Positions 4,630 through 24,903 of a stretch of DNA of 31,942 nt are shown one piece after another. Within the stretch, counting starts at the first letter, position 1. Every line of letters starts with the position of its first letter. Location of the stretch: the IMG/VR virus record IMGVR_UViG_3300011113_000058, positions 1-31,942 of that record; one strand, given 5' to 3'. Origin of the DNA: a virus. Position numbers and translations under genes: made by a program. A model generated the notes under the pieces. That model saw nothing but the letters and a program-made list of their open reading frames with translations. It had not been told where the DNA came from and searched no databases.

Positions 4630-4637
4630 TATAAATA
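4630..4637 (+). promoter_or_regulatory. Late promoter (TATAAATA) abutting gp13
   Basis: An exact TATAAATA, with an overlapping CATAAATA at 4624-4631. The box ends only 7 nt before the gp13 ATG (4645) and there is no Shine-Dalgarno sequence between them. T4 late transcripts start a few nucleotides after this box, so a leaderless or nearly leaderless mRNA is inferred. Confidence 0.7.
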
Positions 4638-4644
4638 GAAATTT

Positions 4645-5445
4645 ATGGCAACACCTAATTCCAGAGAAACCATCATACAATACGCTCTACGACAACTAGG
4701 CTCTCCTGTTGTGGATGTTAATGTGGATTGGCAACAATGCGAGGATCGTTTAGACGACGCTTTGCAATACTTTGTAGAACGTCATTTTGATGGTGTAGAA
4801 AAGGTATTTTTTAAATATCAAGTAACCGAGACAGACATTCAAAATGGTTATATTCCTACAGACGATATAACTTATCCTAATGGTGTAGATGGTCCTACAG
4901 GAAAGGATATTGTATCTGTTGTTCGCGTTATGCAATTTGGTCGTTTTACAAACATTAATATGTTTGATATACGTTATCAGTTAGCTTTAACAGATTATTT
5001 TGGTATTAATCGTAATCTTAGTGGTGTTCATTCTATGGGTCTTGCATCTTATGATGCAACTAAAAGATATATTAAACTTATAGAAGATTTATTTCAACCG
5101 GAAAAAGCAATAGTTTTTAGTAAAGTTACTAATAAATTATATTTAAACATGAATTGGGATGAAGAAGTGGAGCCGGGAGATTATCTAGTAATTCAAGCAT
5201 ATGCCGCACTAGATCCAGAAATTTACACCGAAATATTTAATGACAGATATTTAAAAAGATATGTAACTGCTCTTATTAAAAAACAATGGGGATCTAATAT
5301 GTCTAAATTTGATGGAGTGGCTCTTCCTGGAGGGGTAACTCTTAGAGGATCTCAGATATATGCAGAGGCAATAGCCGAAATAGCTGCTATAGAACAAGAC
5401 GTATTACGCAGTTATGAGCTACCTGTAGACTTTATGACAGGATAA
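4645..5445 (+). CDS. 13: Neck protein gp13 (head completion)
   Basis: The 266-residue protein resembles T4 gp13, which with gp14 forms the neck that closes the filled head and accepts the tail. The N-terminus (SRETIIQYALRQLGSPVVDVN, then a QCEDRLDDALQYF segment and HFDGVEK) is characteristic of the environmental T4-like gp13 family. It is shorter than T4 gp13 (309 residues), as in other non-enteric relatives. The ATG at 4645 has no Shine-Dalgarno sequence; a late promoter ends 7 nt upstream. It is followed 2 nt later by gp14, giving the canonical 13-14-15-16-17 order. Confidence 0.9.
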   Translation: MATPNSRETIIQYALRQLGSPVVDVNVDWQQCEDRLDDALQYFVERHFDGVEKVFFKYQVTETDIQNGYIPTDDITYPNGVDGPTGKDIVSVVRVMQFGRFTNINMFDIRYQLALTDYFGINRNLSGVHSMGLASYDATKRYIKLIEDLFQPEKAIVFSKVTNKLYLNMNWDEEVEPGDYLVIQAYAALDPEIYTEIFNDRYLKRYVTALIKKQWGSNMSKFDGVALPGGVTLRGSQIYAEAIAEIAAIEQDVLRSYELPVDFMTG

Positions 5446-5447
5446 AA

Positions 5448-6065
5448 ATGGCTACTAATCCATATTTTAAAGACTATTCTGGCGAACAAGATATTGTTGA
5501 AGATCTTACTGTAGAGATCATAAAAACAATGGGCCGTGACATGTTTTATATTCCCAGAGATATAGGAAATTTAGATCAAATATTTGGAGAAGGAAATCAA
5601 GTAAGTTTTACACACGGTGTTCCTTTAGAAATGTATATTGATACGGTTTCTGGTTTTCCTGGGCAAGGTGATATTTCTAGTAAATTTGGTATAGAAATTA
5701 AAGATAATATTTATCTAACTCTTTCTAAAAAAAGATTTATACAAGAAATTCAAGCTAGATTTCCTTTAATAACCAGACCTAGAGAAGGCGATCTGGTTTA
5801 TTTCCCATTAGCTAAAGCAATATTTGAAATAAATTTTGTAGAACACGAAAATCCATTTTATCAATTAGGAAAATTATACTCATATCAACTAACATGTGAA
5901 CTGTTCTCTTATGATCGTGAAGAATTTGATACAGGAAATACTGATATTGATGTCACTGAAGAAGAGCGAACAGGATTAACGGGAGAAAATCAAATATTTC
6001 AAAATGAGGATTTTGATGTGTTTGATTTTTCCGAAACAGATCCATTTTCTGAAGGAAACTACTAA
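5448..6065 (+). CDS. 14: Neck protein gp14
   Basis: The 205-residue protein has the typical gp14 opening (NPYFKDYSGEQDIVEDLTVE, then MGRDMFYIPRDIGNLDQIFGE). The family partners gp13 in the head-tail connector. The second half is acidic and ends in a Phe/Asp/Glu-rich tail. It begins 2 nt after the gp13 stop with AGGAT upstream of the ATG, and its stop overlaps the gp15 start (TAATG). T4 gp14 is 256 residues, so this is a compact version. Confidence 0.9.
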   Translation: MATNPYFKDYSGEQDIVEDLTVEIIKTMGRDMFYIPRDIGNLDQIFGEGNQVSFTHGVPLEMYIDTVSGFPGQGDISSKFGIEIKDNIYLTLSKKRFIQEIQARFPLITRPREGDLVYFPLAKAIFEINFVEHENPFYQLGKLYSYQLTCELFSYDREEFDTGNTDIDVTEEERTGLTGENQIFQNEDFDVFDFSETDPFSEGNY

Positions 6066-6724
6066 TGTTTAATTATTATAATAATCAAACTATACGAAAA
6101 TTAGTGGTAGGATTTGGGTCTTTATTTAATAGTATAAGCATAAAACAGACCAACAAAAGTGGAAGTGTTCGTACTAGTGTTATTCCATTAACATATGGCC
6201 CCAAAGAAAAATTCGTTAAACGTTTAACACAATTAAGCTCTATTAGTGATGCGACTCGTGTTCAATTTACTATACCCCAAATGGCCTTTGAAATGACTGG
6301 TATGGCATACGATCCAACTAGAGCATTTAATAAATTAAACATAAAAAGATGTGGAACAGGATTAACTGCATCTTATTCTTATGCAGAAACACCATATAAT
6401 TTTGCTTTTAGTTTATACGCTTACACCAGAAACATAGAAGAAAATTTACAAATTATGGAGCAAATTTTACCACAATTTACTCCTGAATTTATTGTAAGAA
6501 TTAATTTTAACGATTTAAATCAAAAAGTAGACGTTCCTATATTTTTAAATGCTACAGGATTAACAGAAGAATATGAAGGCGATTTTAGCACCAGAAGATT
6601 TGTGGTTAGTACTTATCAATTTATAGCAAAATCTTATGTATATGGAGAAATAAAAACAACTCCAACTATTTCTGGCATCACCTTAAGTGCTTCTGGTTTA
6701 TTTAGTGTTGGTATTACCGGATAA
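6065..6724 (+). CDS. 15: Tail terminator / sheath stabiliser gp15
   Basis: The 219-residue protein corresponds to T4 gp15, the hexameric ring that caps the finished tail and joins it to the neck. Family-typical stretches near the N-terminus are YNNQTIRKLVVGFGSLFNSI and VIPLTYGPKEKFVKRL, followed by an AETPYNFAFSLYAYTRNIEE region. It is translationally coupled to gp14 through a one-base TAATG overlap. T4 gp15 is 272 residues; the C-terminus here ends in a short Gly/Ser-rich strand. Confidence 0.9.
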   Translation: MFNYYNNQTIRKLVVGFGSLFNSISIKQTNKSGSVRTSVIPLTYGPKEKFVKRLTQLSSISDATRVQFTIPQMAFEMTGMAYDPTRAFNKLNIKRCGTGLTASYSYAETPYNFAFSLYAYTRNIEENLQIMEQILPQFTPEFIVRINFNDLNQKVDVPIFLNATGLTEEYEGDFSTRRFVVSTYQFIAKSYVYGEIKTTPTISGITLSASGLFSVGITG

Positions 6725-6727
6725 ATA
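6720..6727 (+). promoter_or_regulatory. Late-promoter-like GATAAATA before gp16
   Basis: GATAAATA overlaps the gp15 stop codon and ends 5 nt before the gp16 ATG (6733). No Shine-Dalgarno sequence is present. The same GATAAATA-N5-ATG arrangement occurs before the tube-fold gene at 16766. It is one mismatch from the late consensus, so it is weaker evidence than the exact boxes. Confidence 0.5.
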
Positions 6728-6732
6728 GTTGT

Positions 6733-7179
6733 ATGGAATCTTCTGATATTATATCAAAAAATCTTGGTATCGATTTTACTCCAGATCAAGAACAACAAAT
6801 AGTTAAAAAAACACAGTTATCTGGAATAAGTTTAGATGCAGATTTTGATTATGTGCGTGGTAATATAAAAAATTTAATATCTAACGGAACTGATGCTATA
6901 GATGAAATACTAAAAGTAGCAAAAGCAGGAGATTCGCCAAGAGCTTATGAGGTGGTTTCTCAACTATTAAAAACGGTAGCTGATATGAATAAAGATTTAA
7001 TTGATTTATATCAAAAAACTAAAATGGCAAAAAAAGAAGAAATAAAAGTCAATCATACTACAAACAATTCCATTTATGTTGGATCTACCAGTGATTTACA
7101 AGATTTAATAAACAAAGATCGTAGTCGATTGAAAGCTTTAGACAGTCAAAAATTTTTAGATAACAATAATGGGTTATAA
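6733..7179 (+). CDS. 16: Terminase small subunit gp16
   Basis: The 148-residue, mostly helical, charged protein matches T4 gp16 (164 residues) in position and pattern. A central helical segment (DEILKVAKAGDSPRAYEVV, then LLKTVADMNKDLIDLYQKT) is typical of the ring-forming small terminase that recognises concatemeric DNA and stimulates the gp17 motor. Its 3' end overlaps gp17 by 11 nt. The ATG lacks a Shine-Dalgarno sequence and lies 5 nt downstream of GATAAATA. Confidence 0.88.
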   Translation: MESSDIISKNLGIDFTPDQEQQIVKKTQLSGISLDADFDYVRGNIKNLISNGTDAIDEILKVAKAGDSPRAYEVVSQLLKTVADMNKDLIDLYQKTKMAKKEEIKVNHTTNNSIYVGSTSDLQDLINKDRSRLKALDSQKFLDNNNGL

Positions 7180-8857
7180 AAAGAAAACAGGATATCTTGG
7201 TAATCCCAACTTAAAAGAAGTTGGTACTCAGATAGAATTTACCAAAGAACAAGTAGAAGAGTATATTAAATGCTCTAATGATCCTGTATATTTTATTAAA
7301 AAATATATTAAAATTGTTACACTGGATAAAGGTTTAGAACCTTTTAGTTTGTATGATTATCAAGAAAAAATAGTTAATACTATTCAAAATAACAGATATG
7401 TTATTGCCAAACTCCCGCGACAAACAGGAAAAAGCACTACAACAGTAGCATGGATGGTTCATTATTTAATTTTTAATCAAAATGTTAATATTGCTATTCT
7501 AGCAAATAAATTAAAAACTGCCACTGAAATTATGAAAAGATTAAAGGAAGCATACGAATATCTTCCTAAATGGTTACAACATGGTGTAGTGGAATGGAAT
7601 AAAACATCTATTGCTCTTGAAAATGGATCTAGAGTCATGGCATCAGCAACATCTGCTTCTGCTGTTCGTGGTGGTTCGTATAATGTTATTTTTCTTGACG
7701 AGTTTGCACACGTTCCGTCTAATGTTGCAGACGAATTTTTTAGCTCCGTGTACCCTACAATCACTTCAGGACAAACGACTAAAGTGGTTATAGTATCTAC
7801 TCCAAACGGTTTAAACATGTTTTATAGCCTTTGGCAAGGAGCCAACAGAAAACGTGGTGAAGAAGGCAAAAATGAATATGTTCCTATTGAAGTACATTGG
7901 AGTCAAGTTCCACTATATCCTAGTGGCCCTCTACGAGACCAAAAATGGAAAGAACGAACAATTAAGCAATTAGGGGGAGGATCTGGTGGAGAACAAAAAT
8001 TTCGTAGCGAATATGACTGCGATTTTATAGGATCTTCTAATACTTTAATCTCTACTTCAAAACTTCATGTTCTTTCTCCTAAAACTCCTATCTCAGTCTC
8101 TAAAGAAGGTCTCTGGATTTACGAAGAACCCAGAGAAAATAGAATTTATGTGATGACTGTAGATACTTCTAGAGGTCAAGGAAAGGATTATAGTGCGGCG
8201 GTTGTGCTTGACATTACAGAAGCACCGTATCGTATTGTCGCAAAATACAGAAATAATATAATTTCTCCTATGTTATTCCCGACACTTTTATCCGCTTTAG
8301 GTAAAAAGTATGGGAATGCATACATTTTAATTGAAGTAAACGATATTGGTGGTCAAGTTGCAGATATTTTACATTACGATTTAGAATACGACAATTTACT
8401 AATGAGTATGAATAAAGGACGCTCTGGAATGGTTTTAAACGGTGGATTTGGTCGTGGCGAAACTATAATGGGAGTAAGAACAACATCTACAGTTAAAAAA
8501 TTAGGTTGTTCTATATTAAAAAGTTTAATAGAACAAGATAAACTAATAATAGAAGATGAAGACACCATAAAAGAATTACTTTCATTTGTTGCAAAATGGA
8601 ATAGTTTTGGTGCCGATGATGGGCACACAGACGATCTTGTTATGTGTTTGGTTATTTTTGCGTGGTTAACAAAACAGGGATATTTTAAAGAAATAACGAA
8701 TATTGACATCCGAAAAGAGCTTTTTCAGGGAGAAATTAAAAAAATTGAAGAGGATGACTGGTTTAGTTTTGGCTATATTTCTTCTATAGACCAAAACGAA
8801 GAAACAATAAAACCAGAAGAAAGCGGAGGAGATTTTTGGCATAAAGTTAATCCTTGA
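7169..8857 (+). CDS. 17: Terminase large subunit gp17 (DNA packaging ATPase/nuclease)
   Basis: The 562-residue protein has both terminase domains. The ATPase has Walker A LPRQTGKST (82-90, Lys88), Walker B VIFLDE (173-178, catalytic Glu178) and coupling motif VIVSTPNG (207-214). The C-terminal RNase H-fold nuclease has acidic residues in VDTSRGQG (Asp332), ILIEVND (Glu389) and DDGHTDDLV (Asp488/489), matching the triad of T4 gp17. It packages DNA through the portal and cuts at headful. The ATG at 7169 lies inside gp16 and has no clear Shine-Dalgarno sequence, so translational coupling is likely. Confidence 0.97.
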   Translation: MGYKKKTGYLGNPNLKEVGTQIEFTKEQVEEYIKCSNDPVYFIKKYIKIVTLDKGLEPFSLYDYQEKIVNTIQNNRYVIAKLPRQTGKSTTTVAWMVHYLIFNQNVNIAILANKLKTATEIMKRLKEAYEYLPKWLQHGVVEWNKTSIALENGSRVMASATSASAVRGGSYNVIFLDEFAHVPSNVADEFFSSVYPTITSGQTTKVVIVSTPNGLNMFYSLWQGANRKRGEEGKNEYVPIEVHWSQVPLYPSGPLRDQKWKERTIKQLGGGSGGEQKFRSEYDCDFIGSSNTLISTSKLHVLSPKTPISVSKEGLWIYEEPRENRIYVMTVDTSRGQGKDYSAAVVLDITEAPYRIVAKYRNNIISPMLFPTLLSALGKKYGNAYILIEVNDIGGQVADILHYDLEYDNLLMSMNKGRSGMVLNGGFGRGETIMGVRTTSTVKKLGCSILKSLIEQDKLIIEDEDTIKELLSFVAKWNSFGADDGHTDDLVMCLVIFAWLTKQGYFKEITNIDIRKELFQGEIKKIEEDDWFSFGYISSIDQNEETIKPEESGGDFWHKVNP

Positions 8858-8862
8858 AAAAT

Positions 8863-8870
8863 TATAAATA
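8863..8870 (+). promoter_or_regulatory. Late promoter (TATAAATA) for gp18
   Basis: An exact TATAAATA lies in the 42-bp gap after gp17, about 30 nt upstream of the gp18 ATG. A proper Shine-Dalgarno sequence (AGGAG, 8890-8894) lies between them, so this promoter makes a conventional leader. Confidence 0.75.
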
Positions 8871-8899
8871 TAATGTAAATTATAATATTAGGAGCAAAA

Positions 8900-10087
8900 A
8901 TGCCAATAACAGTTAAAGATAATACATTTACTTCATCAACAGTTAGCGAGGCTCCTTCTGCATTTGTTGCTGGTACTATGTCTTTTAACGGTTTAGTTAA
9001 CTTGTTCGGGACTACTGGCTCTACTGGAAGTTCTGAAACTGAACTAGGATACATGACAGTTCCTACATTAACAGACTGGTTTTCCAGATTATATTCAAAA
9101 TCTTATGGAATTTCTGGGCCTACTGGTGCATGGGCTGGAGAATGGTGGGCTATTCACAATTATTTACAATACGGAGGTCGTTGTGTAATTGGTGGAACGG
9201 GTAGCACTGGAGATTATTTTTCTGCTAATGGCAGCATAACACCAACACAAACGCCCTTACACAATACTTCATTGCTTTCTCTTGATGCGGTTTTTGATTC
9301 TGGTACTACTGCTTCTGCACAAGTAGCTATAGATGTGGCGACAAAACGGCAAGATTGTGTTGCAATAATTGGTAATTATAAAAGAATAACTGGAGCCCCA
9401 GGATTAACACAAAATTATTCTGGAAGAACTGCAGATTTTGGTTTTAATACTTCCAGTCCGTATGTTATATACGTTGCGGGAAGAAAAAAGTTTGTTGCTG
9501 GTATAAGCGAACAAGTTAATATTTTAGAAGCAAATATGAGTCCTGATGTTGCTGGTTGTATGGCACGCTCTGCACGCGATGAAAGAATTTGGGCATCTCC
9601 TGCAGGAAAAACGAGAGGAAGAATATTAGGAGTAGTAGCGTTACAGCAAGCATTTTTGGATGCAGATTCTACTTATATGTTAAATTCTAATGTTAATCCT
9701 ATAATGACCATACCGGGTCAGGGAACATATCTTATGGGAAACGAAACATCACAGACTACTGGAATATTAAGTCGAATAAATGCTGTGATGATGATTGCGT
9801 ATTTAAGAAAACAATTAGAAAATATAGCAGAAAATTTCTTGTTTCAAGTAAACAATTCTAATACCAGACAAGAAATAATATCGTCTATGATTCCAATTTT
9901 AGAAGATGTAAAAGGAGGAAACGGTATTTCTAATTATAAAGTAGTGTGTGATGAAACAAACAATACAACTTCTACGATCAATAATAGCCAGTTAATTATT
10001 GATGTTTTCGTGGATTCTGTGTATGTTGCAGAAACTATACAGATACAAATAGTAAACAGCACCACGACAGAAACTTTTATAGCATAA
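8900..10087 (+). CDS. 18: Contractile tail sheath protein gp18
   Basis: The 395-residue protein belongs to the contractile sheath family. The signature is a C-terminal half with SPDVAGCMARSARDERIWAS and PAGKTRGRILGV, followed by a GILSRINAVMMIAYLRKQLE segment that forms the conserved contractile core. The N-terminus (AFVAGTMSFNGLVNLFGTTG) fits the usual start of sheath proteins. It is far shorter than T4 gp18 (659 residues); the protruding middle domains appear absent and only a small variable insert remains. It is preceded by a TATAAATA and a strong Shine-Dalgarno sequence, as expected for an abundant late protein. The tube protein follows 10 nt downstream. Confidence 0.93.
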   Translation: MPITVKDNTFTSSTVSEAPSAFVAGTMSFNGLVNLFGTTGSTGSSETELGYMTVPTLTDWFSRLYSKSYGISGPTGAWAGEWWAIHNYLQYGGRCVIGGTGSTGDYFSANGSITPTQTPLHNTSLLSLDAVFDSGTTASAQVAIDVATKRQDCVAIIGNYKRITGAPGLTQNYSGRTADFGFNTSSPYVIYVAGRKKFVAGISEQVNILEANMSPDVAGCMARSARDERIWASPAGKTRGRILGVVALQQAFLDADSTYMLNSNVNPIMTIPGQGTYLMGNETSQTTGILSRINAVMMIAYLRKQLENIAENFLFQVNNSNTRQEIISSMIPILEDVKGGNGISNYKVVCDETNNTTSTINNSQLIIDVFVDSVYVAETIQIQIVNSTTTETFIA

Positions 10088-10097
10088 GGATCTATTA

Positions 10098-10649
10098 GTG
10101 TCTCAATCAATAACAAACTTTATTTCTGGGTTTGGTGGGGGTACTCGTCCAAACAGATTTAAAATTATAGGAAATATTGGTGGTACCGTGACCCAAGGAA
10201 AATTTACAGATTTTCATGTAAATTCTGCCAGTTTGCCTTCTGCTACTGTTTCTCCTATAGGAATAAATTATCGTGGAAGAACTGTTCTTTATCCTGGAGA
10301 TCGTTCTTATCAGCCTTGGAATATAGTAGTATTAGATGAAAATCCTAATCAAAAAAGACAAGGCCAAAACAAAACTATTTACGGTGCTTTTCACGAATGG
10401 CAAGAAAGCATAAATAATCACGAAGCAAATACAACAACACAACTAGATCCTTCTAAGCACTTTTCTAGCGTATGGAATGTTATTCAATATGATACAAACG
10501 GAACAACACCAATAAGACGGTTTGATTTATATAATTGTTGGCCTGTGGCTGTTGGACCAATCCAACTGGATATGAGTCAAGACAATTCGTTATGTTATTT
10601 TCCTGTTACTATCGTGTTTAGTCATTATAAGTTTACTGATAAAAAATAA
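10098..10649 (+). CDS. 19: Tail tube protein gp19
   Basis: The 183-residue protein is a tail tube subunit of the gp19 family: a TRPNRFKIIG strand near the N-terminus, the FTDFHVNSASLPSATVSPIG loop, and a C-terminal FDLYNCWPVAVGPIQLDMSQ segment followed by a final beta-strand. T4 gp19 is 163 residues. Translation starts at GTG (10098), with AAGGA at 10085-10089 giving acceptable spacing; no in-frame ATG gives a complete N-terminus. It lies directly between gp18 and gp20 as in T4 and probably shares the gp18 late transcript. Confidence 0.92.
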   Translation: MSQSITNFISGFGGGTRPNRFKIIGNIGGTVTQGKFTDFHVNSASLPSATVSPIGINYRGRTVLYPGDRSYQPWNIVVLDENPNQKRQGQNKTIYGAFHEWQESINNHEANTTTQLDPSKHFSSVWNVIQYDTNGTTPIRRFDLYNCWPVAVGPIQLDMSQDNSLCYFPVTIVFSHYKFTDKK

Positions 10650-10661
10650 TAGGTGAAATTT

Positions 10662-12661: not shown

Positions 12662-12670
12662 GGAAATCAA

Positions 12671-13674: not shown

Positions 13675-13678
13675 AGAT

Positions 13679-14237: not shown

Positions 14238-14245
14238 TATAAATA
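14238..14245 (+). promoter_or_regulatory. Late promoter (TATAAATA) for gp22
   Basis: An exact TATAAATA in the 50-bp gap before gp22, followed by TTAGGA (14255-14260) as Shine-Dalgarno sequence and ATG at 14269. It gives a short conventional leader. Confidence 0.75.
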
Positions 14246-15204: not shown

Positions 15205-15206
15205 AA

Positions 15207-15214
15207 TATAAATA
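15207..15214 (+). promoter_or_regulatory. Late promoter (TATAAATA) for gp23
   Basis: An exact TATAAATA lies 24 nt upstream of the gp23 ATG. A strong AAGGAG (15225-15230) provides ribosome binding, consistent with the very high expression expected of the major capsid protein. Confidence 0.8.
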
Positions 15215-16687: not shown

Positions 16688-16716
16688 TCTAAACCTTAAT
16701 AATAACAACTAACGTC

Positions 16717-16746
16717 AAGGGCTCCCCCTAAAAAGGGAGCCCTTTT
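16717..16746 (+). terminator. Intrinsic terminator after gp23
   Basis: A perfect 10-bp stem (AAGGGCTCCC, 16717-16726, with GGGAGCCCTT, 16735-16744) encloses an 8-nt loop and runs into TTTT. This is the strongest hairpin noticed in the window and separates the head operon from the next gene. Confidence 0.93.
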
Positions 16747-16752
16747 CGTTTA

Positions 16753-16760
16753 GATAAATA
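16753..16760 (+). promoter_or_regulatory. Late-promoter-like GATAAATA before the tube-fold gene
   Basis: GATAAATA lies just after the gp23 terminator and ends 5 nt before ATG 16766. There is no Shine-Dalgarno sequence. Since transcription from gp23 should end upstream, this gene needs its own promoter, which strengthens this otherwise one-mismatch box. Confidence 0.55.
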
Positions 16761-16765
16761 ATAAT

Positions 16766-17263
16766 ATGACAACATGCGACACTTCAAGTAATCCATTATT
16801 AACAAATTATTTTAAATTTACTTTAAGTCGTGTACCAAACATGGTTTATTTTTGCCAGACAGCAAATCTACCAGGAATAGGATACGGAACATCTTTACAA
16901 CCAACCAGTTTAGGATATCCTGTTAAAAGACCTACAGGAGCAATAATGTTTGAAGATTTGTTGCTAACATTCAAAGTAGACGAAAATCTAGCAAATTGGA
17001 GAGAACTTCATAATTGGATATACGAAACTTCTAATTATGGTGATGATGCGTCAACAAAAAGAGAACCTTTAAAAGTTTCTGAAGCAAATCTAGTAATAAC
17101 AAATAGTTCTTATAGACCAAAATATTCTATATTATTTCGAGAAGTTTTTCCAATATATTTAAGTGGATTGGATTTTAGTGTTACCCAACCACAATCTGTT
17201 CCTGTGGTTGCTGCTGTGCGGTTTTCTTATACAGATTACACTGTAACTGCTGTTACTTCTTAA
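16766..17263 (+). CDS. Tail-tube-fold structural protein (gp19/gp54-like)
   Basis: The 165-residue protein follows the tail-tube plan: an N-terminal NYFKFTLSRVPNMVYFCQTA strand, then NLPGIGYGT, a FEDLLLTFKVDENLANWREL middle, and a C-terminal EVFPIYLSGLDFSVTQPQ with a final aromatic strand. This parallels the gp19 layout (F-x-x-Q, LP loop, DDW segment, W-P-x-x-V-G). It is a second tube-like protein besides the one at 10098, so a tube initiator, tube terminator or gp3-like completion role is possible. Gp3 is often encoded right after gp23 in cyanophages, but I cannot tell which applies. It is transcribed separately from gp23 by a GATAAATA. Confidence 0.7.
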   Translation: MTTCDTSSNPLLTNYFKFTLSRVPNMVYFCQTANLPGIGYGTSLQPTSLGYPVKRPTGAIMFEDLLLTFKVDENLANWRELHNWIYETSNYGDDASTKREPLKVSEANLVITNSSYRPKYSILFREVFPIYLSGLDFSVTQPQSVPVVAAVRFSYTDYTVTAVTS

Positions 17264-17265
17264 AT

Positions 17266-17295
17266 TTGTATTTTTAATATTTTGGTGTATATTAT
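17266..17295 (+). promoter_or_regulatory. Candidate sigma70-type promoter abutting uvsY
   Basis: TTGTAT (17266-17271), an 18-bp spacer and TATTAT (17290-17295) lie in the 37-bp gap before uvsY. An alternative -10 TATATT at 17288-17293 gives a 16-bp spacer. The -10 ends 5 nt before ATG 17301 and no Shine-Dalgarno sequence is seen, so the transcript could be leaderless. The match is moderate. Confidence 0.45.
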
Positions 17296-17300
17296 ACAAA

Positions 17301-17735
17301 ATGACTTTAGATGAACTTAAAAAAATGGTAGCAGAAGACATCAAGATAGATCAAACAGAACTTGATCGTGAATCTGCAAATACTCCACAATTACACAATA
17401 AATATCTGACATTTTTTATGGATGAGCGACTAAAGCACCAAAAACTAGAAAGAGAAGCTTCGGCTCTTCGCAGAAATAAATGGCTATACTATACAGGCCG
17501 AATGAGCAAAGAAGAATTAGAACAATTTGGTTGGGAGCCGTTTGAACTAAATGTTCTTAAAACTGAAGCCGACGATCTGATTGAATCTGATTCAGATTGG
17601 CTTAAACTTCAAGAAAAGGTATCATTTCAAAAAGAAAAAGTCAACTATCTTGAGGGTGTTGTCAAAATTATCAATAATCGTCAATGGCAGATTCGTGCCA
17701 TGATAGATTGGATTAAATTTACTCAAGGAGCGTAA
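17301..17735 (+). CDS. uvsY: Recombination mediator UvsY
   Basis: The 144-residue protein matches UvsY (T4: 137 residues), which helps load the UvsX recombinase onto single-stranded DNA coated by gp32. Recognisable family segments are LHNKYLTFFMDERLKHQKLE, the RRNKWLYYTGRMSKEELEQF helix-turn region, and the C-terminal VVKIINNRQWQIRAMIDWIK with FTQG. It is all-helical and charged. It directly abuts uvsW, whose TTG start follows its TAA stop. UvsX and gp32 are not in this window. Confidence 0.93.
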   Translation: MTLDELKKMVAEDIKIDQTELDRESANTPQLHNKYLTFFMDERLKHQKLEREASALRRNKWLYYTGRMSKEELEQFGWEPFELNVLKTEADDLIESDSDWLKLQEKVSFQKEKVNYLEGVVKIINNRQWQIRAMIDWIKFTQGA

Positions 17736-19262
17736 TTGGCTGATTTAAAGATCACTCAACCTGATGCAGTAATGCTTAAAATTCATTGTGATCGCTCTTT
17801 GGCTAAAGAGCTGAACAGCTACTTTACGTTCACCGTTCCTAATTTTCAATACACACCCGCCTTTAAAAACCGAGTTTGGGACGGTAAAATACGATTATTT
17901 AATCTGTATACCCAGACTATATTTGCTGGTTTAGAAGGCCAACTAGTTAAATTTGCAAAAGATCGTGGATACACTTGGGAGGAATCTTTACTCCCATATT
18001 CTATCCCAGATACACAAACAGTCAAGGAGTTTATAGACGGTTTAACAATAACCGCAGGAGGCAAAGAGGTTCGTCCTTACGAGTATCAGGTGGAGGCCGT
18101 TCAACACGCCCTGAATCGATCCAGAGCCCTCCTGGTGTCTCCTACAGGCTCTGGTAAGTCGCTAATGATATACCTGCTATGTCGCTGGATATTAGACCAA
18201 AACCCAACCGGAAAATTGCTAATAATAGTTCCTACCACTAGTTTGGTAGCCCAGATGTTAGCAGATTTTCGAGACTACTCTAAACAAGACTCGTGGAGGG
18301 CAGACCGAAATATCCATACCATCATGTCTGGAAAAGACAAGAATACGAGTAAGCGTTTAGTTATTTCCACATGGCAAAGCATATACAATCAGCCACAAGA
18401 ATACTTTAATGAATTTATTGGAGTGTTTGGAGACGAGTGCCATCTGTTTAAAGCCAAGTCCCTAACCTCTATAATGACTAAAGCAAAAAATACCAAATAC
18501 CGTATTGGAACAACAGGTACGTTAGATGGTACCCAAACTCATCGTTTAGTTATTGAAGGATTGTTTGGCCCAACGTATCACACCACAACAACCAAAAAAC
18601 TAATAGATCAAGATTTATTGTCTAGTATTAATATCGATTGTCTACAACTTCAGTACACGCCTGAAGATATTCAAACCACCAAAAAGATGATATACGCAGA
18701 CGAGATTCGTTGGGTTGTAAGTAATACTAGACGTAACAAATTTATTAAAAATCTTTGCAACAAGTTGTCTGGTAATACTTTAGTTCTTTTTAACTTTGTA
18801 GAGTTACAAGGCAAACCACTTTACGAGTTAATTAAATCTACTTCCACCAAGCCTGTGTATTTTATTCATGGAGCAACTGAAGTAGATGAACGCGAACAGA
18901 TCCGAAAAGTTATGGACAAAGGATCTGATGCCACTCTTATAGCTTCTTACGGCACATGTTCCACAGGCATAAATATAAGAAACATACACAATATTGTTTT
19001 TGCTTCGCCATCCAAATCGGTGATACGAATTTTACAATCAATCGGTAGAGGACTGCGTAAAAGCGAAACAAAAGTAAAAATGAAACTGATTGATATTGCA
19101 GATGATCTTCGTTATAAGAAACACGTCAACCACGGAATGAATCATTTGCATGAACGTTTAAAAATATATACTAATGAAGGATTTCCGTATAAATTAGTGT
19201 CGGTACAATTACCAAAGGAGTCTCATGAAACATTACAAAATACTGAAACTGAAATCGGGTGA
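17736..19262 (+). CDS. uvsW: Recombination helicase UvsW
   Basis: This superfamily 2 helicase of 508 residues (T4 about 503) branch-migrates recombination intermediates and unwinds R-loops, which in T4 shuts off origin-dependent replication late. Visible motifs are a Q-like RPYEYQ (113-118), Walker A SPTGSGKS (135-142, Lys141), motif II DECH (233-236), motif III-like GTTGTLDG (258-265) and motif VI SIGRGLRK (435-442). The N-terminal domain (1-100) has the small UvsW substrate-binding region (NRVWDGKIRLFN). The start is TTG at 17736, directly after the uvsY stop. The 3' end overlaps the next gene by 38 bp. Confidence 0.95.
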   Translation: MADLKITQPDAVMLKIHCDRSLAKELNSYFTFTVPNFQYTPAFKNRVWDGKIRLFNLYTQTIFAGLEGQLVKFAKDRGYTWEESLLPYSIPDTQTVKEFIDGLTITAGGKEVRPYEYQVEAVQHALNRSRALLVSPTGSGKSLMIYLLCRWILDQNPTGKLLIIVPTTSLVAQMLADFRDYSKQDSWRADRNIHTIMSGKDKNTSKRLVISTWQSIYNQPQEYFNEFIGVFGDECHLFKAKSLTSIMTKAKNTKYRIGTTGTLDGTQTHRLVIEGLFGPTYHTTTTKKLIDQDLLSSINIDCLQLQYTPEDIQTTKKMIYADEIRWVVSNTRRNKFIKNLCNKLSGNTLVLFNFVELQGKPLYELIKSTSTKPVYFIHGATEVDEREQIRKVMDKGSDATLIASYGTCSTGINIRNIHNIVFASPSKSVIRILQSIGRGLRKSETKVKMKLIDIADDLRYKKHVNHGMNHLHERLKIYTNEGFPYKLVSVQLPKESHETLQNTETEIG

Positions 19263-19914
19263 AGATTTAGTTGGTTTAGTTAGAGCGAGCAAAGATGGAA
19301 TGATTAAAATTCATAGACCTATGGTAATGAAATCTATGGTATCTCAAGATCTTTTTGGTTATATGAAAGAGATTTTTATGCTTAAAAATTGGTTAACTCT
19401 TTCTGATGATCGTGTAGCTGTAATTTCTAAAGATTCTGTGAACACTATTGTTAATGCTTCCAAAGATGTTTCAGAATTATATGATATGGAAAAATTAAAA
19501 CAAGATGCTATGCCTAACCGAAAAGTAAAAACTAATATGCCTCCTGTGGCTAAAAGCAATCAACAATTTGATGACAGTTTTATTGAGTCATTAACCAAAC
19601 AGCTTGAAGATATGCTACATCAAGATGCGAAAAACGACGAAAAAGATTCGAACTTAAAAGATCTTGATAAACCAAAATTTGATGATAAAATGATATTTAT
19701 GAACATGGTTTTCTCTCCTAACATACTCATTGAAATGTTAAAGAACGGTATGTTAGACCGTAAAGAGTTTGGCGAGATGGTTAATGAGATTACCAATGGA
19801 AATGGCGAGGGGATGAATCCCCAAAAATACACTGGTAATAAGAAAGATAAAAAGAATCTAGGAAACGACTGGACTGATTGGCCAGCCGACCCCAACTCCT
19901 CGGATTATAAATAA
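19225..19914 (+). CDS. Unknown protein with a possible Sm-like N-terminal domain
   Basis: The 229-residue protein begins with a beta-rich stretch (HYKILKLKSGEDLVGLVRAS, then KDGMIKIHRPMVMKS) reminiscent of the Sm1/Sm2 pattern found in short LSm-like proteins of cyanophages. That fold often binds RNA. The middle (about 100-150) is charged and probably disordered. A second conserved-looking segment (DDKMIFMNMVFSPNILIEML, then KNGMLDRKEFGEMVNEI) follows, and the tail is Asp/Asn/Lys-rich. It starts inside uvsW with a good AAGGAG before ATG 19225. The Sm-like call is a pattern judgement and is uncertain. Confidence 0.7.
   Translation: MKHYKILKLKSGEDLVGLVRASKDGMIKIHRPMVMKSMVSQDLFGYMKEIFMLKNWLTLSDDRVAVISKDSVNTIVNASKDVSELYDMEKLKQDAMPNRKVKTNMPPVAKSNQQFDDSFIESLTKQLEDMLHQDAKNDEKDSNLKDLDKPKFDDKMIFMNMVFSPNILIEMLKNGMLDRKEFGEMVNEITNGNGEGMNPQKYTGNKKDKKNLGNDWTDWPADPNSSDYK
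19906..19913 (+). promoter_or_regulatory. TATAAATA box upstream of the gp55 gene
   Basis: An exact TATAAATA overlaps the stop codon of the preceding gene, 47 nt upstream of the gp55 ATG. It could let the late sigma factor transcribe its own gene, or be a chance product of an Asn-Tyr-Lys-stop codon run in AT-rich DNA. Confidence 0.4.
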
Positions 19915-19960
19915 TTCTTTATTTTTCCCAGACAAACTATTATAGCAGGAATTTTATATC

Positions 19961-20548
19961 ATGTCAAGTGGAAAACTTAAAAAAAATAAAAAGATAAAAA
20001 CAGAAAAAATAGATACTAAAATAGCAAAAGAATTAACTAAAGAACATTATATTGATAATAAACGTTTCCTTGCGGAAATGATTAAATGGAAAAAAGAAAT
20101 ACGAGAAGCGGAAGATAGCGGAGACGAAACTCCACCAGTGTCGGAATATATTGGTCAATGCTTTATGAAGATTGCAGAACGTTTATCTTCTAAAGCTAAT
20201 TTCATGAATTATCCGTATAAAGAAGAAATGATTGGAGACGGAATTGAAAATTGTTTGATGTATGCCCATAATTTCAATCCACGCAAATCAAAAAATCCAT
20301 TCTCTTATTTTACTCAAATAATATATTATGCATTTCTCCGTCGAATAGAAAGAGAAAAAAAGCAGGGTTATATAAAATATAAGTTGACAGAAGAGATGGA
20401 TGATGGTACACTACACAAGTGGTTTAAAGAAAATTACTTTGAAAAGAATAATGAACGCGAAGCTCTTAGTGAATTATTTCAAATATCAGAAAATGATATA
20501 AAGAAATACGAACCAAAGAAGAGAAAGAAACGTCGTAAGAAATCATGA
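19961..20548 (+). CDS. 55: Late-transcription sigma factor gp55
   Basis: The 195-residue protein matches T4 gp55 (185 residues), the divergent sigma factor that redirects host RNA polymerase to TATAAATA late promoters together with gp33 and the gp45 clamp. The core reads SSKANFMNYPYKEEMIGDGI, then ENCLMYAHNFNPRKSKNPFS and YFTQIIYYAFLRRIEREKKQ, which is the sigma region 2-like segment conserved in the family. Both ends are Lys-rich. Spacer sequence AGCAGGA supplies the Shine-Dalgarno sequence. Its stop overlaps gp47 by ATGA. The matching late boxes in this window support the assignment. Confidence 0.93.
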   Translation: MSSGKLKKNKKIKTEKIDTKIAKELTKEHYIDNKRFLAEMIKWKKEIREAEDSGDETPPVSEYIGQCFMKIAERLSSKANFMNYPYKEEMIGDGIENCLMYAHNFNPRKSKNPFSYFTQIIYYAFLRRIEREKKQGYIKYKLTEEMDDGTLHKWFKENYFEKNNEREALSELFQISENDIKKYEPKKRKKRRKKS

Positions 20549-21582
20549 AAATTGCAATTATTGGTGATACGCATTTTGGAGCTCGTGGTGATGCTCCAAT
20601 ATTCTTGAATCATTTCTTAAAGTTTTTTGAAGAACAATTTTTTCCGTATCTTAAAGAACACGGAATAACTAAAGTGATTCATCTGGGCGATCTATTTGAT
20701 CGTCGTAAATTTATCAATTTTAATACTCTACACCATGTCCGAAATCGATTTGTTAATTGGTTTGAAACTAATGGCGTAGAGCTGCATTGTATTCTAGGCA
20801 ATCATGACGTGTTTTATAAAAACACAAACCGACTAAATTCTCCCAAAGAAATCCTATCTGATTGTCATAGCAGTTTTCATTTGTACGAAGAACCAACAGA
20901 AGTGTGTTTTAACGGAGCAACTATCTTGATGCTTCCTTGGATCAACGAAGAAAATCAAGAACAATTCATGCAAACGATCAAAGACACTAAAGCAACCATA
21001 CTTGCAGGCCATCTAGAACTTAATGGCTATGAAGTAATGGCCGGTGTTAAGTTTTCGGATGGTATGGATGATCAATTTTTAGAAAAATTTGATTTGGTTC
21101 TGTCTGGACATTTTCATAAAAAAAGCTCTAAAGGAAATGTTCATTATCTGGGAACACAGTATCAGATGACCAGTGTAGATACCAATGAAATTAAAGGATT
21201 TCATATTTTACATACCGAAACACGAGAATTAGAATTTGTGGCTAATCCAAACAAGATGTTCCGAAACATCGAATGGAGAAACAAAGTTGTTATTTCAGAT
21301 TTTGATCCTAACAAATATAAAGGAACTTACGTTAAAGTAATAGTTTACGAAAAAAAGAGTGAATCGGAATTTGACAAGTTCTTGGATATGTTGTATGCTG
21401 CCGAACCAGCAGGAGTTAGTATTATTGAAGATTATAGTGATCGCACAACAGAAGATGCTGAAATCGATATCGGAGAAGACACACTAACTCTTATTAACAA
21501 AGAAATCGATACCATGGAAACAGATGGCCGAGAAGAACTAAAAAATATGGTACGAGAAATTTATATGGAGAGTCTTGATTGA
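20545..21582 (+). CDS. 47: Recombination nuclease subunit gp47 (Mre11-like)
   Basis: The 345-residue metallophosphoesterase matches T4 gp47 (339 residues). Metal-binding motifs are in order: IGDTHFG (Asp8, His10), HLGDLFDRR (Asp49), LGNHD (Asn86, His87), AGHLE (His156) and SGHFHKK (His189, His191). With gp46 it forms the Mre11/Rad50-type complex that resects DNA ends for recombination-dependent replication. The ATGA overlap with gp55 and the TTGA overlap with gp46 indicate tight translational coupling and equimolar synthesis. The C-terminal third is the gp46-binding and capping region. Confidence 0.96.
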   Translation: MKIAIIGDTHFGARGDAPIFLNHFLKFFEEQFFPYLKEHGITKVIHLGDLFDRRKFINFNTLHHVRNRFVNWFETNGVELHCILGNHDVFYKNTNRLNSPKEILSDCHSSFHLYEEPTEVCFNGATILMLPWINEENQEQFMQTIKDTKATILAGHLELNGYEVMAGVKFSDGMDDQFLEKFDLVLSGHFHKKSSKGNVHYLGTQYQMTSVDTNEIKGFHILHTETRELEFVANPNKMFRNIEWRNKVVISDFDPNKYKGTYVKVIVYEKKSESEFDKFLDMLYAAEPAGVSIIEDYSDRTTEDAEIDIGEDTLTLINKEIDTMETDGREELKNMVREIYMESLD

Positions 21583-23303
21583 TCACATTTAAAACTGTTC
21601 GTTTTAAAAATTTTGGATCATTTGGAAACACGAATACAGAAATTCATCTAAGCAAAAATGCCACTACTCTCGTATGTGGTTCTAATGGTAATGGAAAGTC
21701 TTTTGCTTTTTTGGATTCTATCTGCTTTGCTCTGTTTGGTAAACCGTTTCGAAATATGAATATTCCTCAACTTGTAAACAGTATTAATAAAAAGAACTGT
21801 CAGGTTGAGTTAGAATTTCAAGTAGGTAAAACAGAATATAAGATTGTTCGTGGTCTTGCTCCTAAACTATTTAAAATTTATAAAGACGGTCAATTATTAA
21901 ATGAAGACGCTAAAAGCAAAGATTATCAGAAAGTTTTAGAAGAACAGATTGTAGGAATGAACTACAAAACATTTTCTCAGGTGGTAGTTCTGGGTTCATC
22001 TTCTTTTATTCCATTTATGCAGTTAACTCCTGCAGACCGACGAGCTGTTATTGAAACTATTTTGGATATCGGTATATTTTCTCAGATGAACACAACTCTT
22101 AAAACCAAAATAGGAGTTGCTCGTGGAAACTTACAAACAGTAGATTCGGAATTGCTGGTATTAAATGAAAAGATATCTGCCACCAAAGAAGTGTTAGAAT
22201 CGTATCAAAAAAATACAAGTGATCGTGTAGCAGACCGTAAACGCTCTTTAGAAGAAAATACAGAAACTATTAAAACTCTTTCTAAAGAAATTAAACAATT
22301 AAACAAAACAATTAAAGATCTGGAACCAGAACTAGAAACCGGCGATCAAATCAATGCGGAACTCAAGAAACAACAGATAGTCCTGTTCAAATTAGAAAAC
22401 TCTTTAGAAAGCATACAAGAAGATATGAAGTTTTTCCGAGAGAATCATTCTTGTCCAACTTGTAAGCAAGCTATCACCAAAGAACACAAAGAGTCGGTTA
22501 TCAACGAAAAAAATCAAAAAGCAGAAGAACAACAGCGTTCATTGGATCGCATAAAAGAAGCTATTAACATGTCAAAGAACAACCTGAATAAGATTACAGG
22601 AGTTCAAAATAAAATAAATGACATGTTAATTAAATCTTCTGCCAAAGAACAAACCATGGAATCTCTTATCAAACTAAACGAAAAATTAGATCAAGAGATG
22701 GTTATGGTTGTAGAAACAGCAAACACACAATCTAAGATTCAAGAATCTCAAGAAAAATTAACGGATCTTCTTTCCAAACAAGCAGATTTATTAAAGAAAA
22801 AACAAAAAATAGTCGATACGCTTCGTGGATACGACAAGCTTTTAGTCCTGTTTAAAGATACAGGAATTAAAGCAAAGATTATTAAATATTACATTCCACT
22901 AATAAACAAACACGTAAATAAGTATCTTAATTCTATGGATTTTGATGCAAACTTTCATTTAGACGAAGGATTCAATGAGGTAATTAAAAGTCGTCATCGT
23001 GATCAATTTTCATACGAATCTTTTAGCGAAGGTGAAAAAATGCGTATAGATCTAGCTCTTTTATTAACGTGGAGAGAGATTGCCAAACTAAAAAATAGTG
23101 TAAGCACAAACTTATTGATCCTAGATGAGGTATTTGATTCTAGTTTAGATAGTGGTGGCATAGACGAATTCATGAAACTTCTATCTAGTTTTGGAACTAA
23201 AGCTAATATATTTGTTATTAGTCACAAAACAGATCAATTACTAGATAGATTTAATCATGTTGTACAATTTGAGAAGAAAAAGAACTTTAGTAGAATAGTA
23301 TGA
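21579..23303 (+). CDS. 46: Recombination nuclease subunit gp46 (Rad50-like ATPase)
   Basis: The 574-residue SMC-type ATPase matches T4 gp46 (560 residues). It has Walker A GSNGNGKS (34-41), a long coiled coil from about 185 to 425 interrupted by the zinc-hook CPTC (292-295), the ABC signature FSEGE (482-486), Walker B LLILDE (512-517) and switch His549 in VISHK. It partners gp47 in end resection. The start is TTG at 21579, overlapping the gp47 stop. Its stop overlaps the next gene by ATGA. Confidence 0.96.
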   Translation: MITFKTVRFKNFGSFGNTNTEIHLSKNATTLVCGSNGNGKSFAFLDSICFALFGKPFRNMNIPQLVNSINKKNCQVELEFQVGKTEYKIVRGLAPKLFKIYKDGQLLNEDAKSKDYQKVLEEQIVGMNYKTFSQVVVLGSSSFIPFMQLTPADRRAVIETILDIGIFSQMNTTLKTKIGVARGNLQTVDSELLVLNEKISATKEVLESYQKNTSDRVADRKRSLEENTETIKTLSKEIKQLNKTIKDLEPELETGDQINAELKKQQIVLFKLENSLESIQEDMKFFRENHSCPTCKQAITKEHKESVINEKNQKAEEQQRSLDRIKEAINMSKNNLNKITGVQNKINDMLIKSSAKEQTMESLIKLNEKLDQEMVMVVETANTQSKIQESQEKLTDLLSKQADLLKKKQKIVDTLRGYDKLLVLFKDTGIKAKIIKYYIPLINKHVNKYLNSMDFDANFHLDEGFNEVIKSRHRDQFSYESFSEGEKMRIDLALLLTWREIAKLKNSVSTNLLILDEVFDSSLDSGGIDEFMKLLSSFGTKANIFVISHKTDQLLDRFNHVVQFEKKKNFSRIV

Positions 23304-24031
23304 AAAAGAAAAAGAAAAAAGTATCTCGTAGAATTGGCCGAGGAGATTCTGTTGATTCGCTGATTATGGGCAGCGAGCCTGTATGGAAAGATGCAGACAA
23401 ACTAACCCCAGAAGAGTACGATAGCAAAGTATTGAAAGCTATTAATTGGTATAGTTATTCTTGTGATAACAATCTATGTAAGCCTTGGGTTATAGATTGG
23501 ATGAGTAAAAATGATTATTCTAAGAAAGATATACGAGCCGCAGCAGCATGTGATATTGATGCTATGGAGTTTATGTACATAGGTAGTCGCTGCCGTATCA
23601 TGAATCTGGGAGCAAAACTAAGACCAGAAACTGTAGAAATGGTTCGTAGAAATGTAGATCAAATTATTCAATTAGGTTTATTGCGACCAACTAAAACTGT
23701 AGAAAAAGAAAAAGTAAACGTACAAGAACGCATTTTAAATAAATCTAAAGAATACATGGAAGTAATTGAGGCAAGATTAGATCAGTTTTACAGTCTAGCC
23801 GAAAAAGATCAATTAAAAAATATAGATCATGCAGAATGGCTTCGTATGGAAGGCATAAAACACGTACACCATAAACGTTTAGTAAAAATTTTAGATCCAC
23901 ACATTAAAGAACTAAAACAAGCATATAAAGGTGATCCTGATTTAAAAGAAGCATTTGGATTTTTAGGAAAGCGTAAAATTAAGCAAATGATTACTGTTTT
24001 GGAACAATTTAAAACAGTTTTAAACTCTTAA
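23300..24031 (+). CDS. Conserved-looking unknown protein downstream of gp46
   Basis: The 243-residue protein is coupled to gp46 by an ATGA overlap. It opens with a very basic tail (MKKKKKKVSRRIGRG), then a helical domain with NWYSYSCDNNLCKPWVIDWM and SKNDYSKKDIRAAAACDIDA, and a C-terminal helical domain rich in Lys/Glu that ends QMITVLEQFKTVLNS. I recall similar uncharacterised proteins at this place in environmental T4-like phages, but cannot name a function. The basic tail and operon position suggest a nucleic-acid-linked role in recombination or replication; this is inference. Confidence 0.7.
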   Translation: MKKKKKKVSRRIGRGDSVDSLIMGSEPVWKDADKLTPEEYDSKVLKAINWYSYSCDNNLCKPWVIDWMSKNDYSKKDIRAAAACDIDAMEFMYIGSRCRIMNLGAKLRPETVEMVRRNVDQIIQLGLLRPTKTVEKEKVNVQERILNKSKEYMEVIEARLDQFYSLAEKDQLKNIDHAEWLRMEGIKHVHHKRLVKILDPHIKELKQAYKGDPDLKEAFGFLGKRKIKQMITVLEQFKTVLNS

Positions 24032-24032
24032 T

Positions 24033-24060
24033 TTGACTTTATGATAAATTGGAGTATAAT
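24033..24060 (+). promoter_or_regulatory. Near-consensus sigma70 promoter abutting the RNase H gene
   Basis: TTGACT (24033-24038), a 16-bp spacer and a perfect TATAAT (24055-24060) lie in the gap after the previous stop codon. The -10 ends 6 nt before ATG 24067, so transcription should start at or next to the start codon. The only GGAG (24051-24054) lies upstream of the -10 and would not be transcribed. Confidence 0.8.
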
Positions 24061-24066
24061 TTAAGT

Positions 24067-24903
24067 ATGTTACTTATTGACAACAGCCAGATTATTTTGG
24101 CTAATATATTTCAGGCATCCAAGGACGGACAGCCTTTAAATGAAGATTATATCAGACACACCGTGTTGAATACTTACAGAAAGTATCGTGTTCAATTTCG
24201 TGATTTTGGTCAGCTTGTTGTTTGTAATGACGGATCAGACTATTGGCGAAAGGGCATCTTTCCTCAATACAAACAAAACCGACGAAAGCAACAAGAAGCA
24301 CGAAAAGACGAATGGGCTGAAGTATTCAAAGTTCTTGATAAGATTCGCGATGAAATTAAGGACAATTTTCCTTATCCTAGTATCAAACTTCGTGGTGCTG
24401 AAGCAGATGATATCATTTATGTGTTAACTAAAGCACATTATCAGTCTGAGCCTGTTCTTATTCTTTCTAATGATAAAGATTTTCAGCAGCTTCAAATTTT
24501 TCCTAATGTTAAACAATATAGTCCTATGACTAAAGAATTTATTACTTGTCCAGATCCTAGAGAATTTCTTTTTAATCAAATTATTTTTGGAGATAGTTCT
24601 GATGGAATTCCTAACATTTTTTCAGATGACGATACATTCGTCACAGATGGAAAGCGTCAAGTACGAATGACCCAAAAGCGTATTGCAGAACTTAAAGAAT
24701 CTGCAGAACACTCTTCATTTTTTGAAAATCCTAAATATATTAGAAACAAAACTCTTATTGATCTTACATCTATTCCCGATGATATACAAGAGCGTATCCT
24801 TGAAGAATTTAATAACCAGCAAGGTAAAGGCAGAGAAAAACTGCTTAATTATTTCATGGAGCATAAACTAAAGACTCTGCTACCTGATATTGAGGAATTT
24901 TAA
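24067..24903 (+). CDS. rnh: RNase H (5'-3' exonuclease, FEN-like)
   Basis: The 278-residue FEN-family nuclease matches T4 RNase H (305 residues), which removes RNA primers and flap DNA from lagging-strand fragments. The acidic metal-binding residues are in LLIDNSQ (Asp5), CNDGSDYWRKG (Asp55), GAEADDII (Glu112, Asp114, Asp115), SNDKDFQQL (Asp136, Asp138) and GDSSDGIPN (Asp176, Asp179). The C-terminus (KLKTLLPDIEEF) fits the gp32/clamp-interacting tail. ATG 24067 is preferred over TTG 24049 because the family begins with this LLIDNSQ strand and a promoter overlaps the TTG region. Confidence 0.93.
   Translation: MLLIDNSQIILANIFQASKDGQPLNEDYIRHTVLNTYRKYRVQFRDFGQLVVCNDGSDYWRKGIFPQYKQNRRKQQEARKDEWAEVFKVLDKIRDEIKDNFPYPSIKLRGAEADDIIYVLTKAHYQSEPVLILSNDKDFQQLQIFPNVKQYSPMTKEFITCPDPREFLFNQIIFGDSSDGIPNIFSDDDTFVTDGKRQVRMTQKRIAELKESAEHSSFFENPKYIRNKTLIDLTSIPDDIQERILEEFNNQQGKGREKLLNYFMEHKLKTLLPDIEEF

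What the first reader, a model, noticed from the sequence alone, without database searches (positions are those of the whole stretch)
4630..24069. Promoter boxes directly abutting start codons predict leaderless phage mRNAs
The TATAAATA before gp13 ends 7 nt from the ATG. The GATAAATA before gp16 (6720-6727) and before the tube-fold gene (16753-16760) each end 5 nt from the ATG. The sigma70-like -10 boxes before uvsY and RNase H end 5 and 6 nt from their ATGs. None has a Shine-Dalgarno sequence in the predicted transcript; in the RNase H gene a GGAG exists but lies upstream of the -10. T4-type late transcription begins a few nt after the box, so start codons would sit at or near +1. In contrast the Cys-rich gene, gp18, gp22 and gp23 have a TATAAATA plus a leader with AGGAG-like sites. 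Two translation-initiation classes under one late sigma factor would be an unusual control layer, perhaps setting low versus high output.
Basis: partly seen in the sequence, partly recalled or inferred. Interest (0 to 1): 0.75.

Follow-up and report, generated by a model that had tools for sequence, protein, structure and literature searches.

The report
Leaderless mRNAs in T4-like phages
In a group of environmental T4-like phages, and in cultured relatives that infect SAR11 bacteria, many genes have their promoter so close to the start codon that the messenger RNA should begin at the AUG itself, with no ribosome-binding leader, whereas T4 and a cyanophage show no such sites.

Summary
The core of the finding holds and is larger than reported. 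Late boxes (NATAAATA type) ending exactly 5 nt from an ATG form a sharp peak across 11 contigs of the window's clade: 27 sites, against 0-10 at any other gap below 14. The same peak is in the SAR11 phages HTVC008M (11) and Mosig (6), weakly in Melnitz (3), and absent from T4, Syn9, phiM12 and RHph_I1_9. Sigma70-type promoters peak one base further out (gap 6), as promoter geometry predicts if both start RNA at the A of AUG. At these sites the base before AUG is a pyrimidine (29/30 and 22/23, against 53% of all ATGs), an initiator signature. In gp13 orthologues a Shine-Dalgarno is present when the box is at least 15 nt away (17/19), never when nearer (0/19). The gp3-like gene is the clearest case: terminator, box, 5 nt, AUG. 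Corrections: the conserved gp13 box is 4624-4631 and uvsY -10 is 17288-17293; gp16 is weak; the Cys-rich gene is a poor contrast. Leaderless starts also occur under sigma70. gp18, gp22 and gp23 keep leaders, mostly with SD, which fits an output difference but does not test it. No RNA data; host unknown.

The parts
16711..16750 (+). Terminator-like hairpin with T-rich tail after gp23, directly upstream of the gp3-like gene's promoter box
   Evidence: fold -24 kcal/mol, z -6.6; conserved in nearly all close relatives
16753..16760 (+). gp55-type late box GATAAATA, 5 nt before the ATG, so predicted +1 = A of AUG
   Evidence: gap 5 in 8 of 9 deduplicated close relatives and gap 8 in the other; the two divergent orthologues in the same table have gap 20-21 with SD
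16766..17263 (+). gp3-like tail-tube terminator / tail completion protein, predicted leaderless (clearest case)
   Evidence: PHROG tail tube E 1.5e-28; matches annotated cyanophage gp3; no in-frame ATG between codon 1 and codon 27
17266..17271 (+). -35-like TTGTAT of the uvsY promoter, 16-nt spacer
   Evidence: window sequence aligned by eye with relatives' TTGAAA/TTGTAA at spacer 16
17288..17293 (+). -10 TATATT of uvsY (conserved register), 7 nt before the ATG
   Evidence: -10 at gap 5-7 in 24 of 30 deduplicated relatives
17301..17735 (+). uvsY recombination mediator, predicted leaderless or near-leaderless from a sigma70-type promoter
   Evidence: PHROG UvsY E 9e-43
24033..24038 (+). -35 TTGACT of the RNase H promoter, 16-nt spacer
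   Evidence: TTGACTT conserved in most of 19 relatives
24055..24060 (+). -10 TATAAT of the RNase H gene, 6 nt before the ATG, so predicted +1 = A of AUG
   Evidence: gap 6 in 8 and gap 7 in 2 of 10 deduplicated relatives
24067..24903 (+). RNase H-like exonuclease (T4 rnh type), ATG at 24067, predicted leaderless
   Evidence: PHROG exonuclease E 6e-56; relatives match from residue 1
4624..4631 (+). Conserved gp13 late box CATAAATA in gCCATAAATA, 13 nt before the ATG
   Evidence: a late box in 38 of 41 deduplicated gp13 orthologues
4630..4637 (+).
4645..5445 (+). gp13 neck protein; predicted leader 8 nt (or 2 nt), no SD
   Evidence: PHROG head-tail adaptor Ad2 E 6e-37
6720..6727 (+). GATAAATA before gp16, sharing TAA with the gp15 stop; 5 nt before the ATG (weak case)
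6733..7179 (+). gp16 small terminase, possibly leaderless, possibly coupled to gp15
   Evidence: PHROG terminase small subunit E 1e-33
8863..8870 (+). Late box of gp18 (leadered class), gap 29, with AGGAG
14238..14245 (+). Late box of gp22 (leadered class), gap 23, with AGGA
15207..15214 (+). Late box of gp23 (leadered class), gap 24, with AGGAG
19961..20548 (+). gp55-type late sigma factor expected to read these late boxes
   Evidence: PHROG late sigma transcription factor E 9e-57
25611..26375 (+). gp45-type sliding clamp (processivity factor), activator of T4 late promoters
   Evidence: PHROG DNA polymerase processivity factor E 4e-71

Best explanation
The phages of this clade express a substantial set of genes from leaderless or near-leaderless mRNAs. 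The promoter's -10 element (gp55 late box at -13 to -6, or sigma70 -10 at -12 to -7) sits where a Shine-Dalgarno sequence would normally be, so RNA polymerase starts at the A of the AUG, or within two bases of it, and the ribosome starts on the 5'-terminal AUG without SD pairing. Other genes, consistently the most abundant virion proteins gp18, gp22 and gp23, keep a leader, mostly with an SD. Shown by sequence: exact register, conservation, base preferences and SD pattern. Inferred: the actual RNA 5' ends, 70S-type initiation, and any effect on output.
For: Late boxes: gap 5 = 27 sites, gaps 6 and 7 = 10 each in clade contigs, in 24 unrelated families at gaps 4-8; only TAAATA of 15 A4T2 permutations gives a peak of this size, apart from the one-base-shifted overlap ATAAAT; shuffles give about 0.1-0.5 per genome. 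Sigma70-type promoters: gap 6 = 18, gap 7 = 10. The one-base offset between the two classes (Fisher 4e-8) matches the T4 late box lying at -13 to -6 (PMC2988020, PMC7892883) and sigma70 -10 at -12 to -7 (general knowledge). Pyrimidine at -1: 29/30 and 22/23 against 53%; by family 27/29, p 2e-6. Starts: ATG 47 at gaps 5-7, GTG 0, TTG 2. gp13 orthologues: SD 0/19 at gap up to 14, 17/19 at 15 or more. Terminator-like hairpins precede 12/74 leaderless sites, against 2/154 leadered and 3/1145 box-less starts. HTVC008M GenBank starts coincide with 7 predicted leaderless ATGs. NATAAATA is a recognised late promoter in S-PM2 (PMC2984593).
Against: No RNA 5' end has been mapped in any of these phages as far as I could find. 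Counts partly repeat orthologues. ORFs in the clade contigs were called by a simple greedy script, not curated. Read-through from upstream genes is possible for gp16 and some others. SD absence at gaps 5-7 is partly forced, because the box occupies the SD site. The host, and so its tolerance of leaderless mRNA, is unknown (host searches found nothing).
Confidence: 0.82

Rival explanations
1. The boxes are real promoters, but the protein is mostly made from longer read-through RNAs; the short RNAs are untranslated or minor.
For: gp16 lies 8 nt after the gp15 stop in a dense same-strand gene block and most orthologues lack the box. Some relatives (e.g. L366, L368, L372, L374) replace the uvsY promoter by an SD-like site.
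Against: Strong terminator-like hairpins lie immediately before the gp3 box in nearly all close relatives and before several unrelated leaderless genes. SD sites are missing from the read-through RNA as well. Read-through does not explain exact register, pyrimidine -1, or the SD threshold in gp13.
Confidence: 0.1
2. RNA starts a few bases upstream of the assumed +1 (start-site slippage or a shifted register in this phage's RNA polymerase complex), giving 3-8 nt leaders rather than true leaderless mRNA.
For: Late gaps of 6, 7 and 8-13 also occur; the conserved gp13 box in the window predicts an 8-nt leader.
Against: The peak is exactly at 5 (late) and 6 (sigma70), with pyrimidine -1 at just those gaps and not at late gaps 6-7 (8/22).
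Confidence: 0.1
3. The AT-rich motif is a translation-enhancing or stop-codon-derived sequence, not a promoter; the match to the late box is compositional chance.
For: The genomes are AT-rich; gp16's box shares the gp15 stop codon.
Against: Only the late-box core peaks among 15 permutations; the same box is at gap 21-34 in gp18, gp22 and gp23; sigma70-type sites with -35 elements show the parallel pattern one base further out; T4, at similar GC (35%), has none.
Confidence: 0.04

Closest known systems
T4 late promoters (gp55/gp33/gp45-dependent TATAAATA)
   Same: Same 8-bp box, gp55 and clamp homologues encoded in the window, and leadered gp18, gp22, gp23 as in classic late genes.
   Different: In T4 and Syn9 such boxes are essentially absent within 8 nt of a called start codon (T4 none, mode 28 nt; Syn9 one at gap 2); here a large subset abuts the AUG.
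Deinococcus-Thermus '-10 motif adjacent to ORF' leaderless genes (PMC12340547)
   Same: -10 element directly next to the ORF, no SD, predicted RNA start at the start codon.
   Different: Cellular sigma factor and cellular genes; here a lytic-type phage using both a phage late sigma and sigma70-type promoters.
Leaderless mRNAs of Caulobacter, Sinorhizobium and mycobacteria (PMC4117421, PMC4633059)
   Same: 5'-terminal AUG, no SD; common in some alphaproteobacteria, the class that includes SAR11.
   Different: Bacterial genes with mapped 5' ends. The T4-like phage phiM12 of Sinorhizobium shows no such sites, so host class alone does not decide it.
Phage lambda cI leaderless mRNA
   Same: Phage mRNA starting at AUG from a sigma70 promoter (general knowledge; mentioned in PMC9031893).
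   Different: A single repressor gene; here a genome-wide mode that includes virion genes.

Membership tests
Leaderless mRNA genes | RNA 5' end at or within a few nt of the start codon | not testable with these tools
   Predicted only: gap 5 (late) and gap 6 (sigma70) both put +1 on the A of AUG; needs 5'-end mapping
Leaderless mRNA genes | No Shine-Dalgarno sequence | tested here: met
   0/47 gap 5-7 sites have a 4-nt SD core, against 70% of gap 14-35 sites; partly forced by the box position
Leaderless mRNA genes | AUG rather than GUG/UUG start | tested here: met
   ATG 47, GTG 0, TTG 2 at gaps 5-7, out of 758, 223 and 292 genes with such candidates
Leaderless mRNA genes | Translation by 70S binding to the 5'-terminal AUG | not testable with these tools
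   needs toeprinting or ribosome profiling
T4-type late promoter | TATAAATA-type box (NATAAATA accepted in cyanophages, PMC2984593) | tested here: met
   core TAAATA fixed by the search pattern, A or C before it
T4-type late promoter | gp55 late sigma and gp45 clamp encoded | tested here: met
   window 19961-20548 and 25611-26375
T4-type late promoter | gp33 co-activator encoded | not tested
   window is a fragment; not searched
Sigma70-type promoter (uvsY, RNase H) | TTGACA-like -35, 15-19 nt spacer, TATAAT-like -10 | tested here: met
   RNase H TTGACT-16-TATAAT; uvsY TTGTAT-16-TATATT in the window (weak), TTGAAA-16-TATAAT in relatives

The most novel reading that the evidence does not exclude
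Leaderless expression is a genome-wide translation mode of a lineage of T4-like phages (and of SAR11 phages), under both sigma70 and gp55 control, that sets output: minor virion parts and enzymes are leaderless while gp18, gp22 and gp23 keep SD leaders, and genes switch between the modes in evolution by moving the start codon relative to a fixed promoter box.
Probability: 0.35. Interest if true: 0.78.

Novelty: new variant of a known kind. Interest (0 to 1): 0.66.

Why it matters
T4 late transcription is a textbook system in which genes have SD leaders. A related lineage that puts the late box directly on the AUG shows that the sigma-factor module and the translation-initiation mode can be uncoupled, makes phage gene starts predictable from promoter register, and warns that SD-based gene callers may misplace starts in these aquatic phages. 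Because HTVC008M and Mosig are cultured, the claim can be tested now.

Tried and rejected
Host identification: genome-contig scans with a phage IMPDH and a glycosyltransferase found no relatives; psbA is absent from 15 contigs, so these are not obviously cyanophages, but the host stays unknown. A first control pattern (ATAAATHN) overlapped the box itself and was replaced by all A4T2 permutations and dinucleotide shuffles. A plain TATAAT gap histogram showed no clear peak; requiring a -35 element brought out gap 6-7. The idea that the class is confined to the late sigma was rejected. The literature library gave no report of leaderless T4-type late genes; that library lacks most subscription papers, and the Syn9 transcriptome study (Doron et al. 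2016) did not appear in it.
Full report
WHAT THE WINDOW IS. The 31,942-base window is a whole IMG/VR virus record, a fragment with no host named, of a T4-like phage at 34% GC. It carries gp13 to gp23, a gp3-like tail gene, uvsY, uvsW, gp55, gp47, gp46, an RNase H-like exonuclease and the sliding clamp (gene names without a search result are from gene order and sequence). Close relatives come from many environmental contigs. Named relatives infect Synechococcus, Prochlorococcus, Pelagibacter and Methylophilales, with major capsid protein identity of about 55%.

CHECK OF THE OBSERVATION. T4 late boxes occupy -13 to -6 relative to +1: PMC2988020 gives T(-13), and the cryo-EM paper PMC7892883 places A(-12), A(-9) and A(-8) in protein pockets. 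A gap of 5 nt therefore puts +1 on the A of AUG. For sigma70 (-10 at -12 to -7, general knowledge) the gap must be 6. Orthologues correct two registers: the conserved gp13 box is gCCATAAATA at 4624-4631 (38 of 41 deduplicated orthologues have a late box), and the uvsY -10 is TATATT at 17288-17293. gp16 is weak: its box shares the gp15 stop codon and only 8 of 37 deduplicated orthologues keep a box at gap 5-7. The Cys-rich gene is a poor contrast, because its predicted RNA begins inside the AGGAG and relatives keep the SD rather than the box.

GENOME-WIDE TEST. I fetched long clade contigs and outgroups and measured the gap from every [N][ACT]TAAATA box to candidate ATG starts. In the clade the counts at gaps 0-13 are 1,0,5,1,1,27,10,10,3,5,3,2,4,2; a second, broad mode, mostly with SD sites, lies at 14-31. 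HTVC008M has 11 at gap 5, Mosig 6, Melnitz 3; T4, Syn9, phiM12, RHph_I1_9 and four outgroup contigs have none, P-HM2 has 2, and G017 has 1. Dinucleotide shuffles give 0.05-0.53 per genome. The 51 clade hits at gaps 4-8 fall in 24 protein families, including baseplate wedge and hub, tail fibre, a fibre-assembly-like protein and a RuvC-like protein. Of 15 permutations of the core, only TAAATA peaks this way (27 at gap 5); ATAAAT (23 at gap 6) is the same sites shifted by one base.

SIGMA70 GENES. Requiring a TTG-type -35 with a 15-19 nt spacer, clade promoters peak at gap 6 (18) and gap 7 (10), with little background; T4, Syn9 and phiM12 have none at gaps 5-8. RNase H (19 relatives) and uvsY (most close relatives) keep this arrangement, while most distant orthologues have the -10 some 17-30 nt from the ATG, usually with an SD in the case of uvsY. 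The one-base offset between the two classes (Fisher 4e-8; orthologues repeat, so nominal) is what promoter geometry predicts if both start RNA at AUG.

INITIATOR AND SD SIGNALS. The base before AUG is a pyrimidine in 29/30 late gap-5 sites and 22/23 sigma70 gap-6 sites, against 53% of all ATGs and 8/22 at late gaps 6-7. Counting families once, it is 27 of 29 (p 2e-6). RNA polymerase favours a pyrimidine at -1 and a purine at +1 (general knowledge). In gp13 orthologues the box is fixed and the ATG moves: no SD in 19 cases with gap 14 or less, an SD in 17 of 19 with gap 15 or more. At gaps 10-14 an SD would still fit in the DNA but not inside the predicted RNA, so this is not simply lack of room. 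Across the clade, SD cores occur in 0/47 gap 5-7 sites and 70% of gap 14-35 sites.

TERMINATORS. The gp3-like gene follows a hairpin of -24 kcal/mol (z -6.6) whose T-rich tail runs straight into the box, in nearly all close relatives. Terminator-like hairpins precede 12/74 leaderless sites (five genes by inspection), against 2/154 leadered and 3/1145 box-less starts. For these genes read-through is an unlikely source of translated RNA.

MECHANISM AND LIMITS. Best reading: RNA polymerase with gp55 or sigma70 starts at AUG and ribosomes initiate on the 5'-terminal AUG. Leaders are kept by gp18, gp22 and gp23, mostly with an SD core; these are high-copy proteins in T4 (general knowledge). No transcript data were available and the host is unknown.

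NOVELTY. Leaderless genes are known in bacteria (PMC12340547, PMC4117421), and one paper remarks in passing that phage transcripts are often leaderless (PMC5312081). I found no report, in the papers held, of a leaderless class in T4-type phages; subscription papers were not searchable.

Noticed in passing
L283, L288, L302, L321 and others, upstream of the RNase H ATG: Distant RNase H orthologues share a conserved SD-less leader, GAAACTATTGAAAGTTTRTT, ending at the ATG; function unknown.
   Followed up: no
window 4623-4632 and gp13 orthologues: The gp13 late box is nearly always preceded by GC (tGCCATAAATAc), a stronger context than at other late boxes; reason unknown.
   Followed up: no
L366, L368, L372, L374 upstream of uvsY: A sub-lineage has lost the uvsY sigma70 promoter and carries an AGGAA-type SD instead: a switch from leaderless to leadered initiation.
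   Followed up: partly
HTVC008M 7562 (locus L537:2063): The curli-type gene annotated CsgF, followed by csgG, has a TATAAATA exactly 5 nt before its ATG.
   Followed up: no
window 28180-28818: A gene whose upstream coding region holds a CCTAAATA box at gap 21 in all 8 clade copies listed, with an AGGAA-type SD; possibly an internal late promoter.
   Followed up: no
window 43-4044: Long repetitive ORF cut by the left end, with a Cys-containing C-terminus, followed by a Cys-rich small protein (4086-4607) with no PHROG match.
   Followed up: no
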